Source of the DNA: Circinella umbellata
Lineage: Eukaryota; Mucoromycota; Mucoromycetes; Mucorales; Lichtheimiaceae
Assembly (NCBI GenBank): GCA_025093555.1
Contig: JAIWNF010000036.1
Span: forward strand, 248,001 to 312,000
Reading direction: 5' to 3'
DNA length: 64,000 nucleotides
Part shown: piece by piece, positions 28,723-57,835 of the stretch
Position numbering within the stretch: the first letter of the stretch is position 1
How the letters are laid out: the number at the start of each line of letters is the position of its first letter
Position numbers and translations under genes: made by a program
The notes under the pieces: generated by a model
Seen by the model: the letters and a program-made list of their open reading frames with translations, nothing else
What the model was told of the DNA's origin: nothing
The model's database searches: none

Positions 28723-31700
28723 CTACTGCCTTTTATTTCTTCCACGATATTTCGGTAATACAATGTTTGATACACGAAATAGAGGTGCTTGTGAAGACTC
28801 GGGCGCTGCGCGAAGCCCACGAGATGCTACTATTAGCTGTTGTGGCTGCCGATGAGAGCTATCATTATTATTATTATTAATATCTACATCCAATGATGTA
28901 TTTAAAGGACTAGAAGTACGATGTAGAGAAACTGCTGTTGATGAAGTCGATGGAGCAGATACAGCATCTTGATTCCATATAATAACTGGTTGCTGTAGTG
29001 TAGAAGACGGTTCATATAATGAAAAAAAAAGAAGTATTATTGTAACTTAATGAAGTAGGAGGTGTTGTTTCGAGGTTACTAGTGGGAATGGAAGAGAACT
29101 GCGGAATATGGGCCCGGGTAATATGTCTAGGGGAAAAGATTATAAATTAACAAGCGCCATGGCGCTTGTTAATTTAGAATCATTGTTTAAAATCAACTAT
29201 TGTTTAGTTATAGTAATCAGTCCATAAATGATATTGATAACTACACCTCTTTTATTTGAAGCATAATAAAGATGGAAGAAGTATGGTACTTGCAGGGCTG
29301 TGATTCTACATAATATGTATCACCCTCGTTATTATAAACCCAAGTTTTAGTTTGTAAAATAATACCGACAGTAGGCCTACAGTAGTTTGCTATTACATAT
29401 CAATTTTTTAAAGTCAATAAATCCTGCATGAATGGTTATCACCAATTTGCTGTTTTATTTCTGTATTTCTGGTGTACAAATTTCTTATTTACAACATCTG
29501 AGAATATACGTTCCATTTTTTTTTCACCTCCTTGTCTCATCATGACTTTTTTGTTTCTTTTTATCAAGTCCTCAACCTAAAAATATTAAAATTTTCAGTC
29601 AATAACAGTTCCCCTTCTTTTTTTAGTCTTCTTGATACTTACATCAAGTTGCATCCAATGGTGTTCCTAGATAGAGAAAAATAAATGAGTCTTATTTCGT
29701 CAAAACAATTATATACGAGTGGAGCTCCCACGTATATACTCGAATAAAGTAATATATACCTGAGCAGACTTGGCAGTAATCCGCATCTTTGGATTTACTG
29801 TTAGCAATTGACAAATAAGATTTTTGGCTATGTTGTAAAACAATATTATATATTAATTGACATATGTTCTCGCTCAGAAAAAAAGTTTTGTCAAGTCAAT
29901 AACGGATCTAATACCTTCAGATCTAATGTTAACCCACTCTTGTTCATCAAACTTGCAAGTAGTTTCTATATCATCTATTTTTCGAAAAAAAAAAATATTA
30001 GGTATACCACCATAAATATCAAATAAAAAAGATCAACCAACCAACCGTACCAAGGAATGGCAAACGACCAGAAAGACAAACATAAAGGATTACTCCTGAA
30101 CTCCACAAATCGACTTCTTTTCCGTAAATATTATTCTTTAGTTCTGGTGCTTCTATTTGTATTGAGATAAAGAAAAACCGCATATAAGATTCATATATTA
30201 ATTTCATTGTTTGATTCGTTTCACGTACTATAAAATCGAGTACCACAATTACTTGATAGTGGTAAATTTTCATGTTTCATTGTGGATAAGCCAAAATCTC
30301 CAATCTTGACATGTAAGGTTTCATAGTCAACCAATAGCACTATTTGAAACCAATATATATATTACTTATCGTTAGGATAGGCAACAACAAAATAAAAATG
30401 ACAAGAAAAATAAATTATACCGTTTTCTGGTTTGAGATCCCGATGAACAATCTGTTGATCATGTAAGAACTATATAGTAGATCACTCAAATTCTTTGTTA
30501 ATTATCACATCAAAACAACAAACATACGTATGAATCATATTTTTTCATCAAAATAAACTTGAACAAAACTCACATCAACAGCGTTAAAAAGCTGATGAAA
30601 TACAAAACGAGTTTGTCTTTCATTTAACTTAGTACAAAGAGCTAAGTAGTCACAAAGGTCACCACCAGCAACACTTTATAGAAAATTAATAGCACAAGTT
30701 AGTTTCAAAGCAACAACAAACATAGGTACATATATATGTAAAAATGTACTTACTACTCAAGTGATAAGTAAATGTGGTTTCGATCCTCAAAAACTTTTCC
30801 TATTTGCATTATACAAGGCTATCGACAATATAAAAGCATATCCAATATGTCAGTCAAAAATACATTCTACACCCTACTTATCCATATTTATTTTCTTTCT
30901 TACGTGGGGATCAATTGCCATCATTAGACCAATTTCATTTATTGCTGAAAAATAACAGCTGCGGTACGTTTTATTGATACGCTTGATAGCGAATTCTTTC
31001 GTGGTAGTCTTTTTAAACGCATGCACCACACTGCCAAATCCTCCACTTCCCAGTGTTCTACCGTTGTCGTATTCGTCATGAATAGACTAAGATGAATAAG
31101 ACATATAAGTATATTTCAAAATCAACTTTTAATCCACACTGTGTATATAAGTTTACTATACTTACATTTACTTTGAACCTTGCAGGAAGGATAATTTTAA
31201 ATGCTAATAACAATATAATTGTATATGAAATCAATAACCCACACATTTGATAGATAGATGAAGATAAAGAAGAAGAAGATAATATGCGTTCATATTCTTA
31301 CCCGGGCCACCTTCGTCACCGGTGAATGATATACAATCACCTGATTCTACCTGCTTACGCTTGTTTACTGGTATCAAATTACTATTTACATATGTACCTT
31401 GAAAACTTTTAAAATGAAAGAAAATTCACAATAAGGAACATGTAATATTGAAGATAAGAAAATTGCTACGGAGACCCCCATCTTTTGGCCTTACGGACAT
31501 CCTGACGGATAAAATTTATAAAATAAGATTTTAAACCTACACAAACAGTAGTAAAAGCATTATCTACATTATTAACTTATTTAGCAGCCCATATCTAGTA
31601 TTAAAAGTAAATTCTATTTGTTTGTTGTCTCATCATACAGATTAAAGTCCCCATTTATGTTCGTAACGATTTAATAGTAGTTGTGTAGATGGTGGAACAC

Positions 31701-48266: not shown

Positions 48267-49640
48267 ATGTTACTGTTACCCTTAATAATAACGTTTTTCA
48301 TCACTGCATGTCATCAATTAATACCATCATCCTTTTTCCACCATTTACGACACATTACACCAGCCACAGCACTTCATATACCACTTCATATGGTTGTGCA
48401 ACCTTCTTCCCCAATAGCACCCTCCTCCAAAAAATTAATTGATGTACGTATAGGCGCTCTTTTTATATTTGACCCTGTTGGTGGCCTACGCCTTCGACTT
48501 CCTAGTGAAATTCAAAACACCAAAATTAAAACACTTCGTCAAGCTTTTCGAAATTCCTGGCTTCTATTGTCTGAATGGGTTAATAATTTATTACATCCAA
48601 CAGTTTGGACCATTCCACCAACAACCACCATGAAATCAGCACTACTTTCTTCTATCCCTCTGTTGTATCCAACGTACAATGGCTTAATTATAACGGTCAT
48701 TTAATATTATATATTTAAATACAGCATTTTTCAATTATGTTTCACGGACATTTTGATATTTCACGGTGCGTTTCAATGACTCTTAATATTAAAGAAGTCC
48801 GTCTTCTTTAATGTTACTATTTGACAGCTGCGTTGATATATTATTTTATCAACGGCAAAACGTATAGGACATCTTGTTCACATATTTTATTGTCATTATT
48901 CATTGTCATTAACAAATCGGAAGACTATCATTGTTTCATATATGCATATTGATATACCCGTTCATTGATTAGGATTTAATATAAATAGTGTTAATAATTT
49001 CATTTAATAAACTTCAGTTCAATTATTGTTCTTTTGGGTCTCGTTGACTTTTATAACGTCTCTTTTATTTTATTAATTCTATTAATATAACACCCTCTAT
49101 CCAACAGTACTTCTCTTCAACACCTCTCCACCTCAACCCTACATCATACACTAGATAGCTTCTTATCTCAACAACCAAATACCATCACAAAATCCAATTG
49201 GGTACGATTCTGGCGTGCATCCATACCTCATAATACACGTACAGTCTGGTGGCGGTTACTCACCAACCATATACCTACCAGACAACTACTCCACTCTCAT
49301 ATACCTACTCAGGCTACTTCACCCATTTGCATGCATTGTACTGTTGCCGTGGAAATGGTCAGACATTTTTTCATTGATTGTCCTAATAAACATCGAGTAT
49401 GGTCTATCATTGTTCAACGCCACAACAGTGATTGGACTTCTGATGAACTGTTTCAATTTATCACTACTCTTCAACCACCACATACAATGAATAACACACG
49501 CACCGCTCTCACCTACCATTCTCAGCATCACTATTCATACTATTTGGTGCCATCATTGGAACTATATTTTCAATCGTTCACCTTTCCGTGCAGGCATTAT
49601 TACCAATATCATTGACAACAACATCTGTGTTTTTCAAAGG
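48267..49640 (+). pseudogene. LINE ORF2 C-terminus with zf-RVT-like region, split by a solo LTR
   Basis: The block 48267-48660 (GALFIFDPVGGLRLRLPSEI, LLHPTVWTIPPTTTMKSALL) is interrupted by the LTR at 48661-49092. After it come NWVRFWRASIPHNTRTVWWR and LLTNHIPTRQLL, then CMHCTVAVEMVRHFFIDCPN and HRVWSIIVQRH. WWRLL...C-x2-C...H-x3-C is the pattern of the zinc-binding domain at the end of many LINE reverse transcriptases. Frame changes are present. The 205 bp before 48267 is AT-rich and may be another insert. Confidence 0.7.
48661..49092 (+). mobile_element. solo LTR, 432 bp
   Basis: Begins TGTTGTATCC and ends AATATAACA (TG...CA ends), flanked by the 5-bp direct repeat CCCTC (48656-48660 and 49093-49097), the classic mark of an LTR-retrotransposon insertion. 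It lies inside LINE ORF2. No internal retrotransposon sequence is present, so it is a solo LTR left by recombination. A related inverted copy is at 52099-52504. Confidence 0.85.
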
Positions 49641-49921: not shown

Positions 49922-49985
49922 TTATTACTGTCAATCTTTTTAAAAAAAAGTTATTGGGGTCAAAGGCTGTATCAATAGTGACAAA

Positions 49986-51830
49986 ATGGAATTTAACTTT
50001 AATAATAAAAGACGTGGAAGAAAAACAGGAGGAAAAAATCCTAATGCCAGAAGAAAATCTAATGGACCGAAAGCATTATCTAATGGAGAGTTCATTGCGT
50101 TTAGAGATGAAAATTCTGCTGAGGCAAGTGATTCCAGGAACAATGTCAACAATGGGGTCGTTAATAGGGAATCTACCAGTAGCCGAACTATTGCCATTGA
50201 ATCGAGCCCAATGGAATCGGCTTCTTATGAATCGGCAAGCACTTCTTCAGAAGCATTAACTGTACTTGAAGAATTAGCTACTGTTGGTGAGCTCCTAGAG
50301 GAACAAAATCCAGAGGAGATAGTAACAGATAGTAATGTTGGTGATGACGATGAAGCTGAAGAAGCTGATATGCCGATACCAGAAGAAGATGAGCGAGCTG
50401 ATGAGGATGAGGATAGTGTGCTTGAGGAATATTTTCATAAAATTCAAGATCGCATATGAGTTGAAATGTATCATAATGCAGATCAATTTCCTCAAGAATA
50501 CCAAAATGGAACATTTTGGGTTTATCCAAAATGTTCATTTTTTGAATTAATGGGAGAACAGAAACTCGATCCAAATCTTTTGTACTTTCCGCGTGTTTTT
50601 TTGTGGTTCCCTCACCTTTTATTTAAGAAGTTTTTTAATAAGGAACTAAAGTGTCCTGGATGTAAACAAACTCTTGGGAATAATGGTTATACAAAGACTC
50701 CTTTTGCACGCAGAGTAATAGATATTGATAGGTAAAAGTTAAGTTATAAATATTTTCAAATACTTTCACTATATATGGAATTATTGAAAAAAATTAAAAT
50801 AAAATTAAAATTAGTTGCTCTTATATAATGGGATACCGTTATCAGTGTTCTACAACTGGTTGCAAAAAGAGTTATATCAGCAATGATACCGAAATGATTC
50901 ATCAGCTACCAGAAACATTGCAATGTGAATATCCCGGATATATGACTCATCGAAGTGGACTATCCAAAACTCTGGGCGACCCATATAGACCATCCGTTCA
51001 AAACTCTGTTGGTGCAAAAAGATTCCGTAAGATAATTCGAGAGATATATCATCTCAAGCACGCTCGACTTCATTTACAGTACATCCAACATACTGTCTAT
51101 CAAAGATTACATCAACCTACAATAGCTGATATTATAATTCAGAACCAACAAAAAATAACACCATTTTCTTCATTTAATGATCGATCTAAGTATGCTGGTC
51201 ATGTTCCATCCCCGCAATTCTTCTGCTCATTTTATACTGCATTTATTGGAGAAATAAGACATTTAATTGATAAGGAAATGGAAGTTCTTGATGGTGTATA
51301 TCTTAAAGGTGATCATACATTTAAGATAATTAAGCTGATAAATAAAATCAATGGTCAACCAGTATTTACAGCTCTACATACAGTATTGAACGAATATGAA
51401 GAAGTTTGACTTCAATTTCTCGTTCCAACAAAAGCATTGTCGAATCTACAGTGTGCTTTCGAAGCCATGTAGAAAGCTTATGATTTATATGGATACACAC
51501 AGCCACATATTTTTTTTACTGATAATGTAACTGGAGATCAGAACTTTCTTAAAAATGTTTTACCGTCACTTTCACAAGATGTCGTACCTGTTACTGAAGT
51601 AGAATCACAAGAACCTTTAAATGTCCGTCGTTATCCACTGCTTACCATCCCAAACAATATTGACATAAAATGTATTCATGGATTTCTTGATATTGAAACT
51701 TGTGCCGCCAGCTTGATTAATAACAGAACTTTTCAAGCCATTGGATTTGATTGTGAATGGCCTTATAATACTCAAACATATCAGCAGGAAAAAATCACAA
51801 CAATTCAAATTGCAGATAATAATTGTGTAT
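49986..51830 (+). pseudogene. truncated copy of the transposase-exonuclease gene
   Basis: Starts MEFNFNNKRRGRKTGGKNPN and is homologous in order to the gene at 53556-57747. It has an acidic leader, a zinc-binding block (LKCPGCKQTLGNNGY ... ARRVIDID, intron 50732-50814, then CSTTGCKKSYISND), TLQCEYPGYMTHRSGLS, the DDE-type block DGVYLKGDHTFKIIKL ... IFFTDNVTGD, and the beginning of the exonuclease (GFDCEWPYNTQ). In-frame stops are TGA 50457-50459, TGA 51407-51409 (where the other copy has Arg) and TAG 51470-51472. Homology ends near 51830, inside the exonuclease domain just after its first motif, so the catalytic C-terminal part is lost. Confidence 0.75.
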
Positions 51831-52098: not shown

Positions 52099-52504
52099 TG
52101 TTGTATCACTAGAAATTAATAATAAAAGAGATGTTATAAAAGTCAACGAGACCCAAAAGAACAATAATTGAACTCAAGTTTATTAAATGAAATTATTAAC
52201 ACTATTTATATTAAATCTTAATCAATGAACGGGTATATCAATATGCATATATGAAACAATGATAGTCTTCCGATTTGTTAATGATGATGAATAATGACAA
52301 TAAAATATGTGAACAATAAGTCCTATATGTTTTGCTGTTGATAAGATAATATATCAACACAGCTGTCAAATAGTAACGATAAAGAAGACGGACTTCTTTA
52401 ATATTAAGAGTCATTGAAACGCACCGTGAAATATCAAAATGTCAGTGAAACATATTTGAAAAATGCTGCCGTTATGATCAGGCCATTGTACGTTGGATAC
52501 AACA
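52099..52504 (-). mobile_element. second LTR copy, inverted and slightly shorter
   Basis: Reverse-complement relative of 48661-49092: begins TGTTGTATCACTAG and ends GGATACAACA. It shares long blocks such as GTCAACGAGACCCAAAAGAA and TTTCACGGTGCGTTTC (reverse sense). 406 bp versus 432 bp. The bases on either side (ATGTT and AATCT) do not form a target duplication. It separates the two transposase-exonuclease copies. Confidence 0.8.
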
Positions 52505-53555
52505 AATCTGACTAAAAGTTGATGGATTCTCGTTATCATGCTCAAAATCGATGGTCCAATTTATACACGTTTCCTTCTCTAAAATAGTACTCAAAGTAGA
52601 AAGTCGATGCGGAATCATAAAAAGAGTAATTCATGTAAATGAGGAGCAATTACTATTTTTTATATAGTCCATAGGTATATTTTTTGATGACGATCAATAT
52701 GTACAGAATGCATTGCCCAGCCGATATTAAGTGTAAATTTGATATAACGATCTATGCTGCTTTGCTATAATACCCATTTGGACATATTTTTTTTGAATAA
52801 GTGATGTGAGAATATTCATGCATGATATATTTTTTGGAACGCACTACTAACTGCTGTGACTTGATTTTATTTTTTGGTGCACAATGGGGATGTAATAGTT
52901 ATCTCCATGTATCGGCGAAAGACCAGTGTTTATTTATATTGATACTACTAAATTAGGATAAGGGATGTATACTATCACAATGGGGGTGCACGACTTTTAG
53001 AGGTCCCCGTAAGTACCATGGGAACTTTTTTTTCTAAAAAGAAAAGCGCAGTTTTAAAAAACTGCACCTGATTTCAGTTTTGCCCAAAACACATAAAAGT
53101 GCCTGGCTCCAGCCAATTAAAAACAATTTAGAGGATAGTTAAAATCCATTTTGATTGGATAATGAAGTTTCTTTCCCCATCATTTTTTTTTTTTCGTTAC
53201 TGTTACTGTTACTGTTTTTTGAGTTTCGGGATTTTATTCTGTTACGCATCACTACAATGGGCGGCCCTACAATGCCCAGGGGAATTTTTGGCCAATAAAA
53301 TTGCTATATAGTGGAGCCAATCAAATGCTTTTCTTGTTGCTATGTGAGGAAAAAACTATAATCATACTACGGTTGTATGGGATATGTTAACATTATATGA
53401 GATATATGGAGAGTTGTATCCATGTGTAACATTTTGACTGTTGTTTTTGTTATAGAAAGGGTTGTATACATGATTGTTTTTTTTTTTGTTCTGTTGTTAT
53501 TTCTTTCTTTACATTTTTTTTTTTTTTTTTTTTTTACTTTTTGAATATAATAAAA
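52505..53555. other. spacer upstream of the second transposase-exonuclease gene
   Basis: No gene recognised. Contains a hairpin GCAGTTTT/AAAACTGC (53048-53065), two near-direct CTACAATG..GCCC phrases (53251-53275), a GGAGCCAATC phrase at 53313-53322 echoed by GCTCCAGCCAATT at 53106-53118, and T-runs including a 22-23-nt run ending about 53535 just before the ATG. It may hold the 5' end of the element, but I found no terminal repeat. Confidence 0.4.
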
Positions 53556-55101
53556 ATGGGAAGAGTTATGAAGTCTGCTCGTTCTGTAAAGAACCCTATT
53601 AATAAAATTTTCTCGCTACCCAACACACTACATTACCTTACGAAAAGAATGATCGCGTTCAACAATCCCATGTAAATGTAAATGACAATATACTGGTTAT
53701 TTTAAGATATATCAGTTGAATAAAATTATTAACAATACTTTATAATAGCATTCGGAACAAGCTGTTCTTAATGAAAGTGTTGGTGATACGATGCTTGAAA
53801 TTGAAAAAATTAGTTTGGAAACTTTACAGGACGAGCAGACTGAACAACAAGAACAGCAGCAACAACTTAATGATAATACTGGTAGTGATAGTTCATCAAA
53901 TCACCAACAAGAAGAACCAGATGGTACTCCCCTTGGTGCTGTTCGAGAATATTTATTAAAAATAAAAAAGAAGATTACAAAAAATAAAACCATGCTGTAT
54001 AACGAACATAAATTCTGGATAGAGCCAGAGTCGCCATACTTTTGTTTCCGTGGTCGTCAGAAATTTGATCCAGTTTTACTTTATCGTCCACGTATATTTA
54101 TATGGGCTCCAGATAAACTTGTTGATATTTTTTGCCAAGCTCCAAATTGTGGAGGTAAACTCCACAGTGATGGTTTTAATTGTGATCCTATTGCGCGCCG
54201 AATTGTGGATATCGATAGGTAATAATATTATAAAGACTTGTAGACTATTAATACAATTAATATATCAAAGTAACAATGGATTTTAATAAATATGGATAAA
54301 ATTATGTATATAGTTGTTTTTACATCCTTTCTCAACGCTACAGATGCTACAAATGTAAAAAGACCATTAATGGTCATGATAGTGAACTCATGGATAGTCT
54401 ACCGTACCACATTCAATCAATATTCCCAGCTATATTAACTCATCGAGGTGGTATTTCAAGACAGGTTGCTGATTTACTTCGACCTTGCTTTCAAAATGCT
54501 ATGGGACCGGAACGTCTACATGATCTACTTCAAGAACTTCATCACCTTCGTTATAGTCGTCTCCAACTTACATATTTAACTTCAATTGATCATTAACAAC
54601 AACACGCTCCACAATTATCTTTCTTTGAAAGAAGTGGGGCAAATCAAAGTCATCCATCATTTTCAAATTTCGACGATCCGCTAGGATACGCTGGTTATGT
54701 TCCATCAGCTACCTATTTACGTATGATATATACAGCAATTATGGACCAACTTCGATTATTTATGGATAAAGAGATGGTGGTGTTGGACGGTGTTATTTTA
54801 AAAGGAGATCACACGTTTAAAATAATCAAGCATATGGCAAACGTTGGTGGTGAATCGACATTTTATGCATTATATACCGTATGTAACGAGTTTGAGGAGA
54901 TCAGGCTCCAACTATTAGTACCAACAAAAAAATTGGCACATTTAAAAACATCATTTGAACAAATGTTGAAGTCATATCATTTATACGGTCATCAAGAACC
55001 TCAAATATTTTATACAGACAATATTGCTGGTGATAAACGATTTTTGCAAGAAACCATCCCTTCACTAAATCAACCTTTATCTGCTACTACAACTACAACT
55101 A

Positions 55102-55132
<31 letters not shown>

Positions 55133-57747
55133 GTCATCATCGTCATCCACAACAGCAAACAACAATAATTCAAATTATATATCACTTCCAGATCACATTT
55201 CTCCTCGTTATATTCGTACAGTCAGTGATGCAAACATAGCTATAGAACAAATATTAAGTGATATCCAGGATGGTCGATCAATAACAATCGGTTTTGATAC
55301 CGAATGGAACTATAATAAAGTTACAAAATACATTGGAAAGACGGCTGTCGTACAAATTGCGTGTAATGATTTGCTATTAATTTTACCTATATTGCATTAT
55401 GGAGAACTACCCGAGAAGCTGATCGATTTGTTAAAAAGTAACAATGTTGTTAAAGTTGGGCGTAATGTGGAAAACGACCTTGCAAAGATCAATCGTGATT
55501 ATCAAGTTGACGCCGATAGAAGACATGTAGTAGAGCTAGGCTCATTTGCAAAAGAACAAGGTGCTGTTCAAGACGGTAGAACCAACTTGTCAAACATTTG
55601 TGCTGCTGTATTGGGGTTACCTTTATACAAAGGTGATGATGATAGATTAAGTAATTGGGAAAGTCCATTACTGTCACCAAATCAAATATATTATGCTGGG
55701 CTCGATGCTTGGGTATCTTTAAACGTGTACAATAATTTGATTGAGCGTAGCAAGAATTTAAGAAAGCACAATTATATATCCAATGATTCTATCCAACCAA
55801 CACCCCCACAACAATTTCTTCGTCAATATACGTACCAAGACGACAATCAAGGCCAAGAGTATTTAGATTCTGAATCATCATTGTATGATGAAGATATTTT
55901 TGAAGAACAAGCCGAAGAAGAAGTAATAGAGCAAAATGAAAATTATGGCATAACAAGAATTTTGAAAGACCCATTTCATTTAATGGCCCAGCTCAAAGTC
56001 CCAAAGAAACACAGTCTGGGTATGTACATTTTTAAAACATTACATATAGCTTTGATCATGTAGCTGAAATTACGTATGAATTATATGAGGCATTTTTATA
56101 TACCTATCAGATTTTACTATTTTTTATACCTATAGCAAAGGAATTTGCACGTCGTTTACGCGATGCACTATTTGTAATAGATAAAGATGATAGAAGAAGG
56201 ATTGAAACATATTTACAAAGTCAAAATATCACATTCAAGTATATGTTATCAAAAAATCCAGCTTGGGTCATGAAACGAGTGAAACGGATAATTCCTCCAC
56301 CAAACGAACTGTATCCTGTTGTTGAATTGCTATTCCAAGAGTATGGTCGACAAAAATGCTCACTAACAAATCGTACATTATTTGACGATCAAACTTGGAA
56401 GCAAGCTGAAAATGTTTTGAATACAATTCGATGTGGCTATGTATCAGATCCTCCAGGCGTGTCATTCTATTTTGAAATTGGCAGAGACAAAAACCAATTA
56501 CCTTTATATAGGTGCACTCGTGGGACCAACACTCTTGAGGGGGGTGTTCATATGAATATTATTCGAAAGTTTGCTTCATTTGGGGCCGCGCCTAAATTAA
56601 CTGATTGTATCCTTGCTGATTATCGCTTACGACACAATATCCATGTACGCAGCATTATATTATATGATTTTTTTTTTTAGTTGCATTGATTTTTTGTTGA
56701 TGGTTGTAAGCTGACTACTTTATTTTCTAGGCTAGTATGAAAAACAGATATAAAACAAGACATCAGGGCCACTATGATCCATGGCTAACAGAATCAATTA
56801 ATATTTTATGTCAAAAGTATGGGATGAACACACTAGACCCACGATTTAATGGTGGATATACTAATGGACGATTGCGTCTGATCTCAGGTCAGGAATCCTT
56901 TGGCATTACAGCAATACCAGAAGAAATATCAAAATCACTCAACATGCACCATATACCACAACAACTTCCTGATACCACTGTTACTGTTCCAATGTTGATT
57001 TCTGTTAGTACTCGCTTAGCTATACCCACTGGCATTATGAATAACCCAAGAGGAGCATTATATAATTATCTCGCAACAAAGCAACAAGTTGAAAAAGCAG
57101 TACTGCCACTACACACACAACTAGAATTCAAATTATTTTCAAAAAAATTGCGCTGTATACATAGCCATAATCAATCATCTATCAATTGGAATGAATTAGC
57201 ATGCGAATGGAATAACATTGTAAATACTGGCATGGCACCATATACCCTTTTTTACAAATCACCTGAACACCTTGAATCATTTTATAACTCTTGTTGGAAA
57301 AAGAGAAACGTGGCGTACAATAGTATAATGAATAGCAATGGTGTATGTGAAACAATGGAGTATCAATTGCAATCCCCTGATAGATCATATGAAGTTGTAT
57401 CTGCACAATACCCTGCCCCTTTACGTATTAATGCTTCTATTAACCCTCAAAATGGAATACCTGTTTCACCTTCTGCTATTTCATCTTTCTTACAATCACC
57501 ACCATCATCATCGTCACTAAATCCCACAGCAGAAAACACATCCATATTATCACAAACAATAGTACCACAATCATTATATACCAATAACAGCCGAAGCAGT
57601 GGAAGAGTCATTACAACCTCAACAATATTACCAAGAAAAAGAACACGAAGATCAAAAAAAAAAGTAGTTATACCACTAATACCCAACCATCATCTCCAAC
57701 TCCGTATAGAAAAATCTTACCATTTTCATCACCAGAAGTATTCTTAA
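53556..57747 (+). CDS. candidate DDE transposase with inserted DEDDy 3'-5' exonuclease domain
   Basis: Proposed exons 53556-53585, 53648-53671, 53749-54218, 54344-56019, 56136-56644 and 56731-57747; phases agree; about 1241 aa with one in-frame TAA at 54594-54596 (probably a former CAA). Order: Gln-rich leader; zinc-binding block (FCQAPNCGGKL ... CYKCKKTINGHD); DDE-like block with Asp in LKGDHTFKII (54807) and Asp in IFYTDNIAGD (55017), 69 residues later; poly-Ser; then an exonuclease resembling the WRN/RNase D class (GFDTEW at 55290-55307, KVGRNVENDL, YYAGLDAWVSL). The C-terminal exon 56136-56644 has CTRGTNTLEGGVHMNIIRKF with a candidate Glu (56537) and YRLRHNI. Ends in a Ser-rich basic tail (RKRTRRSKKK). 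The exonuclease assignment is firm; DDE is inferred from spacing. The two first mini-exons are uncertain. Confidence 0.7.
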
Positions 57748-57835
57748 ATCCTCCCCATCAAACTCCGTAACTCATACATAACTCGAATAAAGCGATAATC
57801 TTTTTTCCATATACTTTTTTATTTTTGTTACAATA

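What the first reader, a model, noticed from the sequence alone, without database searches (positions are those of the whole stretch)
53556..57747. DDE-type transposase apparently carrying a 3'-5' exonuclease as its insertion domain
One long gene joins a zinc-binding N-terminus, two Asp motifs with transposase-like spacing (GDHTFK ... YTDN, 69 residues), a complete DEDDy exonuclease (DTE; ND; Y-x3-D) and then a conserved TRGTNTLEGGVH block with a candidate catalytic Glu. Many cut-and-paste transposases hold an insertion domain between the second Asp and the Glu. Here that place seems taken by a WRN/RNase D-like nuclease, which would be an unusual way to process DNA ends or host flaps. Motifs are seen; the DDE assignment and the mechanism are inferred.
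Basis: partly seen in the sequence, partly recalled or inferred. Interest (0 to 1): 0.85.

Follow-up and report, generated by a model that had tools for sequence, protein, structure and literature searches.

The report
Fungal jumping gene carrying an exonuclease
The gene is a decayed copy of a fungal cut-and-paste transposon whose transposase carries a Werner-type exonuclease inside its catalytic domain, an arrangement described in 2013 for Dada transposons and seen here with inverted-repeat ends and without insertion into small RNA genes at the sites examined.

Summary
The gene at 53.5-57.8 kb encodes a Cys4 zinc site (Pfam DUF6729), Asp54807, Asp55017, a complete DEDDy exonuclease, a DxxH motif and Glu56537. 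Homologues in Mucorales, and incomplete ones in Agaricales, keep this order. The DDE triad is kept in 25 of 25 rows that cover it, all five DEDDy residues in 36 of 41. AlphaFold models of two homologues place the flanking parts in an RNase H-like transposase core closest to ISCth4 and the insert closest to WRN exonuclease. The gene lies in a mobile element: sister copies of about 5,568 bp, 99.9% identical, have 23-bp terminal inverted repeats and 8-bp target duplications, and uninterrupted versions of three insertion sites carry the 8 bases once. The window copy is dead: right end lost, one in-frame stop. The architecture is not new: Kojima and Jurka (2013) reported a DEDDy exonuclease between the second Asp and DxxH in Dada transposons of Laccaria and Ectocarpus. 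What differs here is TIRs, 8-bp duplications and no RNA-gene targeting at the sites examined. How the exonuclease serves transposition is inferred.

The parts
53260..53282 (+). left terminal inverted repeat of the window copy (GGCGGCCCTACAATGCCCAGGGG); element starts at 53260, flank ends CTACAATG
   Evidence: alignments with the C18 and C207 copies begin at exactly 53260; one match in the window to the pattern searched
53749..54218 (+). exon with acidic/Gln-rich N-terminus and first zinc Cys pair (start of DUF6729)
   Evidence: splice sites inferred
54344..56019 (+). main exon: second zinc Cys pair, D1, D2, exonuclease, DxxH; contains in-frame TAA at 54594-54596
   Evidence: splice sites inferred
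54807..54809 (+). first catalytic Asp (KGDHTFK)
   Evidence: aligned column D in 52 of 52 rows that cover it
55017..55019 (+). second catalytic Asp (FYTDN)
   Evidence: aligned column D in 50 of 53 rows; N, A, Q once each
55188..55766 (+). WRN-type DEDDy 3'-5' exonuclease domain (D55296, E55302, D55476, Y55692, D55704)
55968..55979 (+). DxxH motif (DPFH)
56136..56644 (+). exon with helical insertion domain and the catalytic Glu block
   Evidence: homologue models; 62% identity to the sister protein
56537..56539 (+). catalytic Glu (TRGTNTLEGGVH)
   Evidence: E in 44 of 44 rows that cover it
56731..57747 (+). last exon, C-terminal region, to stop
57776..57776 (.). point after which the copy no longer matches its relatives: right end and right TIR missing
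   Evidence: C89 and C151 copies continue together beyond it, the window does not

Best explanation
The gene is the transposase gene of a degraded copy of a cut-and-paste DNA transposon. Its transposase is an RNase H-fold DDE enzyme of the DxxH group (IS256/hAT/MuDR/P/Kolobok/Dada). A WRN-type 3'-5' exonuclease with intact catalytic residues, plus in the P0011 model a small beta region, is inserted between the helices after the second Asp and the DxxH strand. A helical insertion domain is still present between DxxH and Glu. Shown: fusion, motif conservation, predicted fold, recent mobility, TIRs and 8-bp target duplications. Inferred: the DDE site cuts both ends and joins them to staggered target DNA, and the exonuclease, held beside the active site, trims 3' ends made during excision (of the element or of the empty donor site).
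Against: Three of six sister-family copies show no matching 8-bp repeat. Five of 41 rows have lost exonuclease residues, and one homologue (P0052) lacks the exonuclease altogether, so either it is not strictly needed or that gene model dropped it. The second Asp is replaced in 3 of 53 rows. The exonuclease is less conserved than the core (mean column 0.45 against 0.63). The profile of the family has no PDB sequence match outside the exonuclease, so the transposase fold rests on predicted structure. No biochemical evidence. Catalytic distances were not measured. Structures were predicted on homologues, not on the window protein.
Confidence: 0.82

Rival explanations
1. The exonuclease works on RNA or on silencing intermediates rather than on transposon ends: it protects the element against RNA interference, as a relative of MUT-7/Nibbler-type nucleases might.
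For: The domain also matches EXD2 and Nibbler/mut-7 homologue. Mucoralean fungi use RNAi (recalled, no call).
Against: Closest match by sequence and fold is WRN, a DNA exonuclease by general knowledge. It is embedded in the transposase core, not encoded as a free protein.
Confidence: 0.12
2. The exonuclease is a structural or DNA-binding module whose catalysis is dispensable.
For: 5 of 41 rows have lost catalytic residues (P0017, P0022, P0031, P0032, P0048); P0017 and P0048 have lost most of them and keep D, D and E.
Against: 36 of 41 keep all five residues although mean column conservation of the domain is only 0.45.
Confidence: 0.2
3. A domesticated host gene rather than a transposon.
For: Long open frames in several fungi.
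Against: Many copies in one genome, recent near-identical insertions with TIRs, target duplications and uninterrupted sites; the window copy is truncated and interrupted.
Confidence: 0.02
4. Not a single protein: a separate exonuclease gene inserted in a transposase gene by annotation or assembly error.
For: The window copy has introns and a stop.
Against: One 865-aa frame spans zinc site to Glu in near-identical copies; the same order recurs in full-length proteins such as P0044 (Zychaea), P0054 (Phascolomyces), P0008 and P0011 (metagenome), and in part (exonuclease to DxxH, Glu not reached) in P0027 (Lentinula).
Confidence: 0.02

Closest known systems
Dada transposons with exonuclease (Laccaria bicolor and Ectocarpus siliculosus; Kojima and Jurka 2013, PMC3706591)
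   Same: DDE transposase with DxxH; DEDDy exonuclease with all four acidic residues between second D and DxxH; N-terminal C4 zinc site (C-x4-C ... C-x2-C spacing of Dada-U6_DR as in the window); D-D spacing 68 in Dada-U6_DR, 70 here; introns; length 5.57 kb inside the 4,666-10,979 bp reported.
   Different: Reported Dada: 6-7 bp target duplications, no terminal inverted repeats in Dada-U6 and U1, insertion in snRNA or tRNA genes. Here: 8 bp, about 23-bp TIRs, no RNA gene found at the sites examined. No Dada sequence could be compared directly.
ISCth4 transposase (PDB 6XG8, 6XGX; IS256-like by recall)
   Same: RNase H core with helical insertion domain; best fold match of the core.
   Different: Bacterial (recalled); its 355-402-residue chains match the core and not the exonuclease; 8-13% identity in the alignments.
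WRN exonuclease domain (PDB 2E6L, 2FBT)
   Different: There part of a RecQ-type helicase (recalled), here inside a transposase.
KolobokD, KolobokE and ISL2EU transposons
   Same: DDE transposons that also encode exonucleases (passages read).
   Different: DEDDh, lambda-type or YqaJ nucleases, described as an accessory protein, downstream of the transposase domain, or in a second ORF.
Pfam DUF6729 (PF20499) proteins
   Same: The N-terminal zinc part of this family.
   Different: Only a domain of unknown function; no paper in the library holds the name.

Membership tests
DDE (RNase H-fold) cut-and-paste transposon | D, D, E conserved in an RNase H-like fold | tested here: met
   25 of 25 rows that cover all three; predicted topology and ISCth4 match; distances not measured
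DDE (RNase H-fold) cut-and-paste transposon | terminal inverted repeats and target duplications | tested here: met
   exact 8-bp repeats in 5 of 9 insertions examined (3 of 6 sister, 1 of 1 own subfamily, 1 of 2 third subfamily); uninterrupted sites for three
Dada superfamily | DxxH (or CxxH) after second D, then E | tested here: met
   D 42 of 44, H 44 of 45, E 44 of 44 rows
Dada superfamily | N-terminal CCCC zinc finger | tested here: met
   window C-x4-C and C-x2-C; both Cys pairs clear in 7 of 9 homologue N-termini printed (not in P0020 and P0052)
Dada superfamily | C-terminal CCHC zinc finger | tested here: inconclusive
   Cys-rich C-terminus in 7 of 15 C-termini printed, several of them partial proteins, and in the sister family, other spacing; not seen in the window copy
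Dada superfamily | exonuclease between D2 and DxxH (Laccaria and Ectocarpus members) | tested here: met
Dada superfamily | 6-7 bp target duplications | tested here: not met
   8 bp
Dada superfamily | no terminal inverted repeats (stated for Dada-U6 and U1) | tested here: not met
   17 of 23 bp terminal match
Dada superfamily | insertion into multicopy small RNA genes | tested here: not met
   0 tRNA genes in 9 sites with flanks joined; no Rfam match at gathering score in 10 occupied stretches (weak test because a split gene would be missed); in 3 uninterrupted sites only two sub-threshold Rfam matches, neither at the insertion point. One site lies in a flavin oxidoreductase gene. Three of four sites searched are in multicopy DNA
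Dada superfamily | direct sequence similarity to a named Dada transposase | not testable with these tools
WRN-type DEDDy exonuclease | DxE, D of the second motif, Y-x3-D and WRN fold | tested here: met
   (all five residues in 36 of 41; the Asn of N-x3-D is the commonest residue but at only 0.49)
IS256 family | sequence-level membership | not tested
   fold only

The most novel reading that the evidence does not exclude
The exonuclease-bearing fungal elements form a lineage of their own, distinct from the RNA-gene-targeting Dada transposons: they have TIRs, 8-bp duplications and dispersed insertion, and the built-in exonuclease is part of how their ends are processed. That would make two nucleases of the same fold superfamily, one nested inside the other, work on the same DNA ends.
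Probability: 0.35. Interest if true: 0.55.

Novelty: new variant of a known kind. Interest (0 to 1): 0.38.

Why it matters
It indicates that an RNase H-fold exonuclease can sit inside an RNase H-fold transposase core without displacing the helical insertion domain. It gives defined ends, target duplications, uninterrupted sites and very recent copies for an exonuclease-bearing element, so the 2013 suggestion that the exonuclease processes 3' ends can be tested on real ends. It also explains what the Mucorales proteins with DUF6729 plus '3'-5' exonuclease' labels found here are: transposases, not host repair enzymes.

Tried and rejected
Host-gene and split-gene readings were rejected (see rivals). 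KDZ transposons were considered because they are common in fungi; I saw only a listing and the outline and passages of PMC12730594 ('exonuclease' 0 times), and dropped them once the Dada paper matched; KDZ membership itself was not tested. Literature on this architecture: searches; of what I opened, only PMC3706591 described it (section 5 and passages read); PMC8869645, PMC3985635, PMC4482050, PMC9587614, PMC4046053 by passages only. I do not claim that nothing else is in print. Inverted-repeat search in the window gave no terminal pair, because the right end is gone. Scans of viral contigs with the alignments could not start. PDB sequence search with the profile hit only exonucleases. Whether P0052 truly lacks the exonuclease or its gene model skipped it could not be decided. 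The first RNA-gene test on occupied sites was weak, since a gene split by the insertion would be missed; it was repeated on joined flanks and uninterrupted sites.

Full report
What is there. The window gene spans about 53.5-57.8 kb on the + strand. Direct reading shows a zinc site split over two exons (C-x4-C, then C-x2-C), KGDHTFK (Asp 54807), FYTDN (Asp 55017), a DEDDy exonuclease, KDPFH (Asp 55968, His 55977) and TRGTNTLEGGVH (Glu 56537). Pfam gives DUF6729 on the zinc exons (25.2 and 37.3 bits against a cut-off of 27) and DNA_pol_A_exo1 (55 bits, cut-off 23.6) on the middle. A TAA at 54594-54596 interrupts the main exon; the close homologues P0001 and P0002 have no stop there.

It is a transposon copy. 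Seven other copies that I fetched share 87-94% of their DNA with the window in their main pieces (one piece 83.5%). Two of them (C18, C207) begin to match exactly at 53260 and two others at 53261 and 53263, where GGCGGCCCTACAATGCCCAGGGG starts. The match ends at about 57776, while two copies (C89, C151) continue together to a right end ...CCCGGGCC. So the window copy has lost its right end. On contig C18 a left end (10422) and a right end (23374), 13 kb apart, are flanked by TTCTATTT on both sides.

A sister family shows recent movement. Of six copies fetched, four (C11, C163, C174, C1) share only the element, about 5,568 bp at 99.9% identity, and two (C160, C157) also share the right flank with C11. 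Ends are GGCGGGTCTGAAGTGCCTGGGCC and, reversed, GGCCCGTGTGACATGTCTGGGCC. Three of six have 8-bp duplications (ATCAAAGT, TAAAATGG, CAGAATTT); three do not. A third subfamily (two copies, C1 and C24, 98.4% identical over 5.4 kb) has AATTTATG in one copy and a 7-of-8 match in the other, with its boundaries judged by eye. The 17-of-23 TIR match was not reached in 20,000 random pairs from inside the sister element (maximum 16).

Empty sites. I joined the flanks of nine insertions with one copy of the 8-mer and searched four of them in the genome. The C160 site has an uninterrupted relative at C79, 157 of 162 identical, with ATCAAAGT once. The C18 site has ten uninterrupted relatives at 92-98%; the one read has TTCTATTT once. 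The C1 site lies in a repeat with many partial matches, and the relative read has CAGAATTT once. The C163 site is found only at its own flanks. The C160 insertion interrupts a gene whose downstream part matches the NADH:flavin oxidoreductase family (90.8 bits). No tRNA gene appears in any of the nine joined sites or in three uninterrupted loci. Rfam gives nothing at gathering score in ten occupied stretches, and in the three uninterrupted loci only two matches far below their cut-offs (SCARNA7 28.8 against 65 bits, mir-297 24.9 against 90), both away from the insertion point. So three of four sites searched are in multicopy DNA, but none looks like a small RNA gene.

One protein, conserved. 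In the sister family a single 865-aa frame carries the second zinc Cys pair, D1, D2, exonuclease, DxxH and Glu (L009:4107-6704); five of six copies keep that frame and one has 511 aa. Homologues come from Circinella, Mucor, Zychaea, Phascolomyces, Helicostylum, Parasitella, Fennellomyces, Apophysomyces and metagenomes, and from Lentinula, Gymnopus and Stygiomarasmius, whose proteins here stop before the Glu. In one alignment of 71 rows (68 database proteins, the sister frame and two window pieces), D1, D2 and E are intact in 25 of 25 rows covering all three; single columns show D1 52 of 52, D2 50 of 53, E 44 of 44. All five exonuclease residues are intact in 36 of 41 covering rows; the exceptions are P0017, P0022, P0031, P0032, P0048. 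Of 15 proteins measured, D1-D2 is 70 residues in 12 of the 13 where my pattern found both (71 in P0017), and DxxH to Glu is 151 in 11 of 12 (152 in P0059). P0052 (Apophysomyces) has only 51 residues between D2 and DxxH and no exonuclease; a gene-model error is not excluded.

What is known. Kojima and Jurka (PLoS One 2013, PMC3706591; [quoted passage not shown] This is the same architecture. The reported Dada ends differ: 6-7 bp duplications, no TIRs in Dada-U6 and U1, small RNA gene targets. Since those features were tested here and not met, and no Dada sequence could be compared, I call this a Dada-like, exonuclease-bearing element and do not file it as a Dada member. The Laccaria elements may share the features seen here; their termini are not given in the passages I read.

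How it probably works. Shown: fusion, predicted fold, conserved catalytic residues in both sites, TIRs, 8-bp duplications, uninterrupted sites, recent copies. From established knowledge of DDE transposons: end cleavage and strand transfer with an 8-bp stagger. Inferred: the exonuclease trims 3' ends at the excised element or the donor break. The frequent but not universal retention of its catalytic residues suggests a useful but not indispensable step, or recent decay in some copies. An RNA-directed or purely structural role is not excluded.

Verdict. Real and correctly spotted, but the key architecture has been in print since 2013. What this work adds is the Mucorales element with its defined ends, its insertion sites and the structural placement.

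Noticed in passing
window 49936-51828: Partial, interrupted copy of a sister subfamily of the same transposon (93.6% DNA identity to L022:1788-3673, contig C101), lying just upstream of the gene.
   Followed up: partly
window 29111-29409 (- strand): Right-end fragment of the window's own subfamily, ending in CCCGGGCC, for which my pattern found no left end on that strand of the window.
   Followed up: partly
window 52099-52468 and 48722-49092: Two inverted copies, 94% identical, of another repeat flanking the 49-52 kb stretch.
   Followed up: no
window 57837 onward: An open frame that looks F-box-like by eye (LFPEEIVINIFSHL, motif from memory) begins about 60 bases after the transposon copy breaks off.
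   Followed up: no
L009, L010, L013: Three sister-family copies share the same right flank (a flavin oxidoreductase gene) but have different left flanks, two of them next to runs of A: segmental duplication, recombination or assembly join.
   Followed up: partly
P0017, P0048: Homologues in which the exonuclease domain is kept in outline but has lost most catalytic residues while D, D and E remain: possible natural controls.
   Followed up: partly
P0011 residues 484-590: Small beta region of unknown kind after the exonuclease; its fold was not searched on its own.
   Followed up: no
L049 (C173:46000-49400): The C18 copy sits in a dispersed repeat that has ten uninterrupted relatives at 92-98% in the genome; the repeat was not identified.
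   Followed up: partly
L051 (C164:15000-16400): The C1 (L014) copy sits in a repeat with inverted matches, which looks like a small inverted-repeat element.
   Followed up: no
genome G000: By comparing places, most of the 49 PF01612 matches in this genome look like copies of this transposon family, so exonuclease gene counts in such fungi would be inflated.
   Followed up: partly
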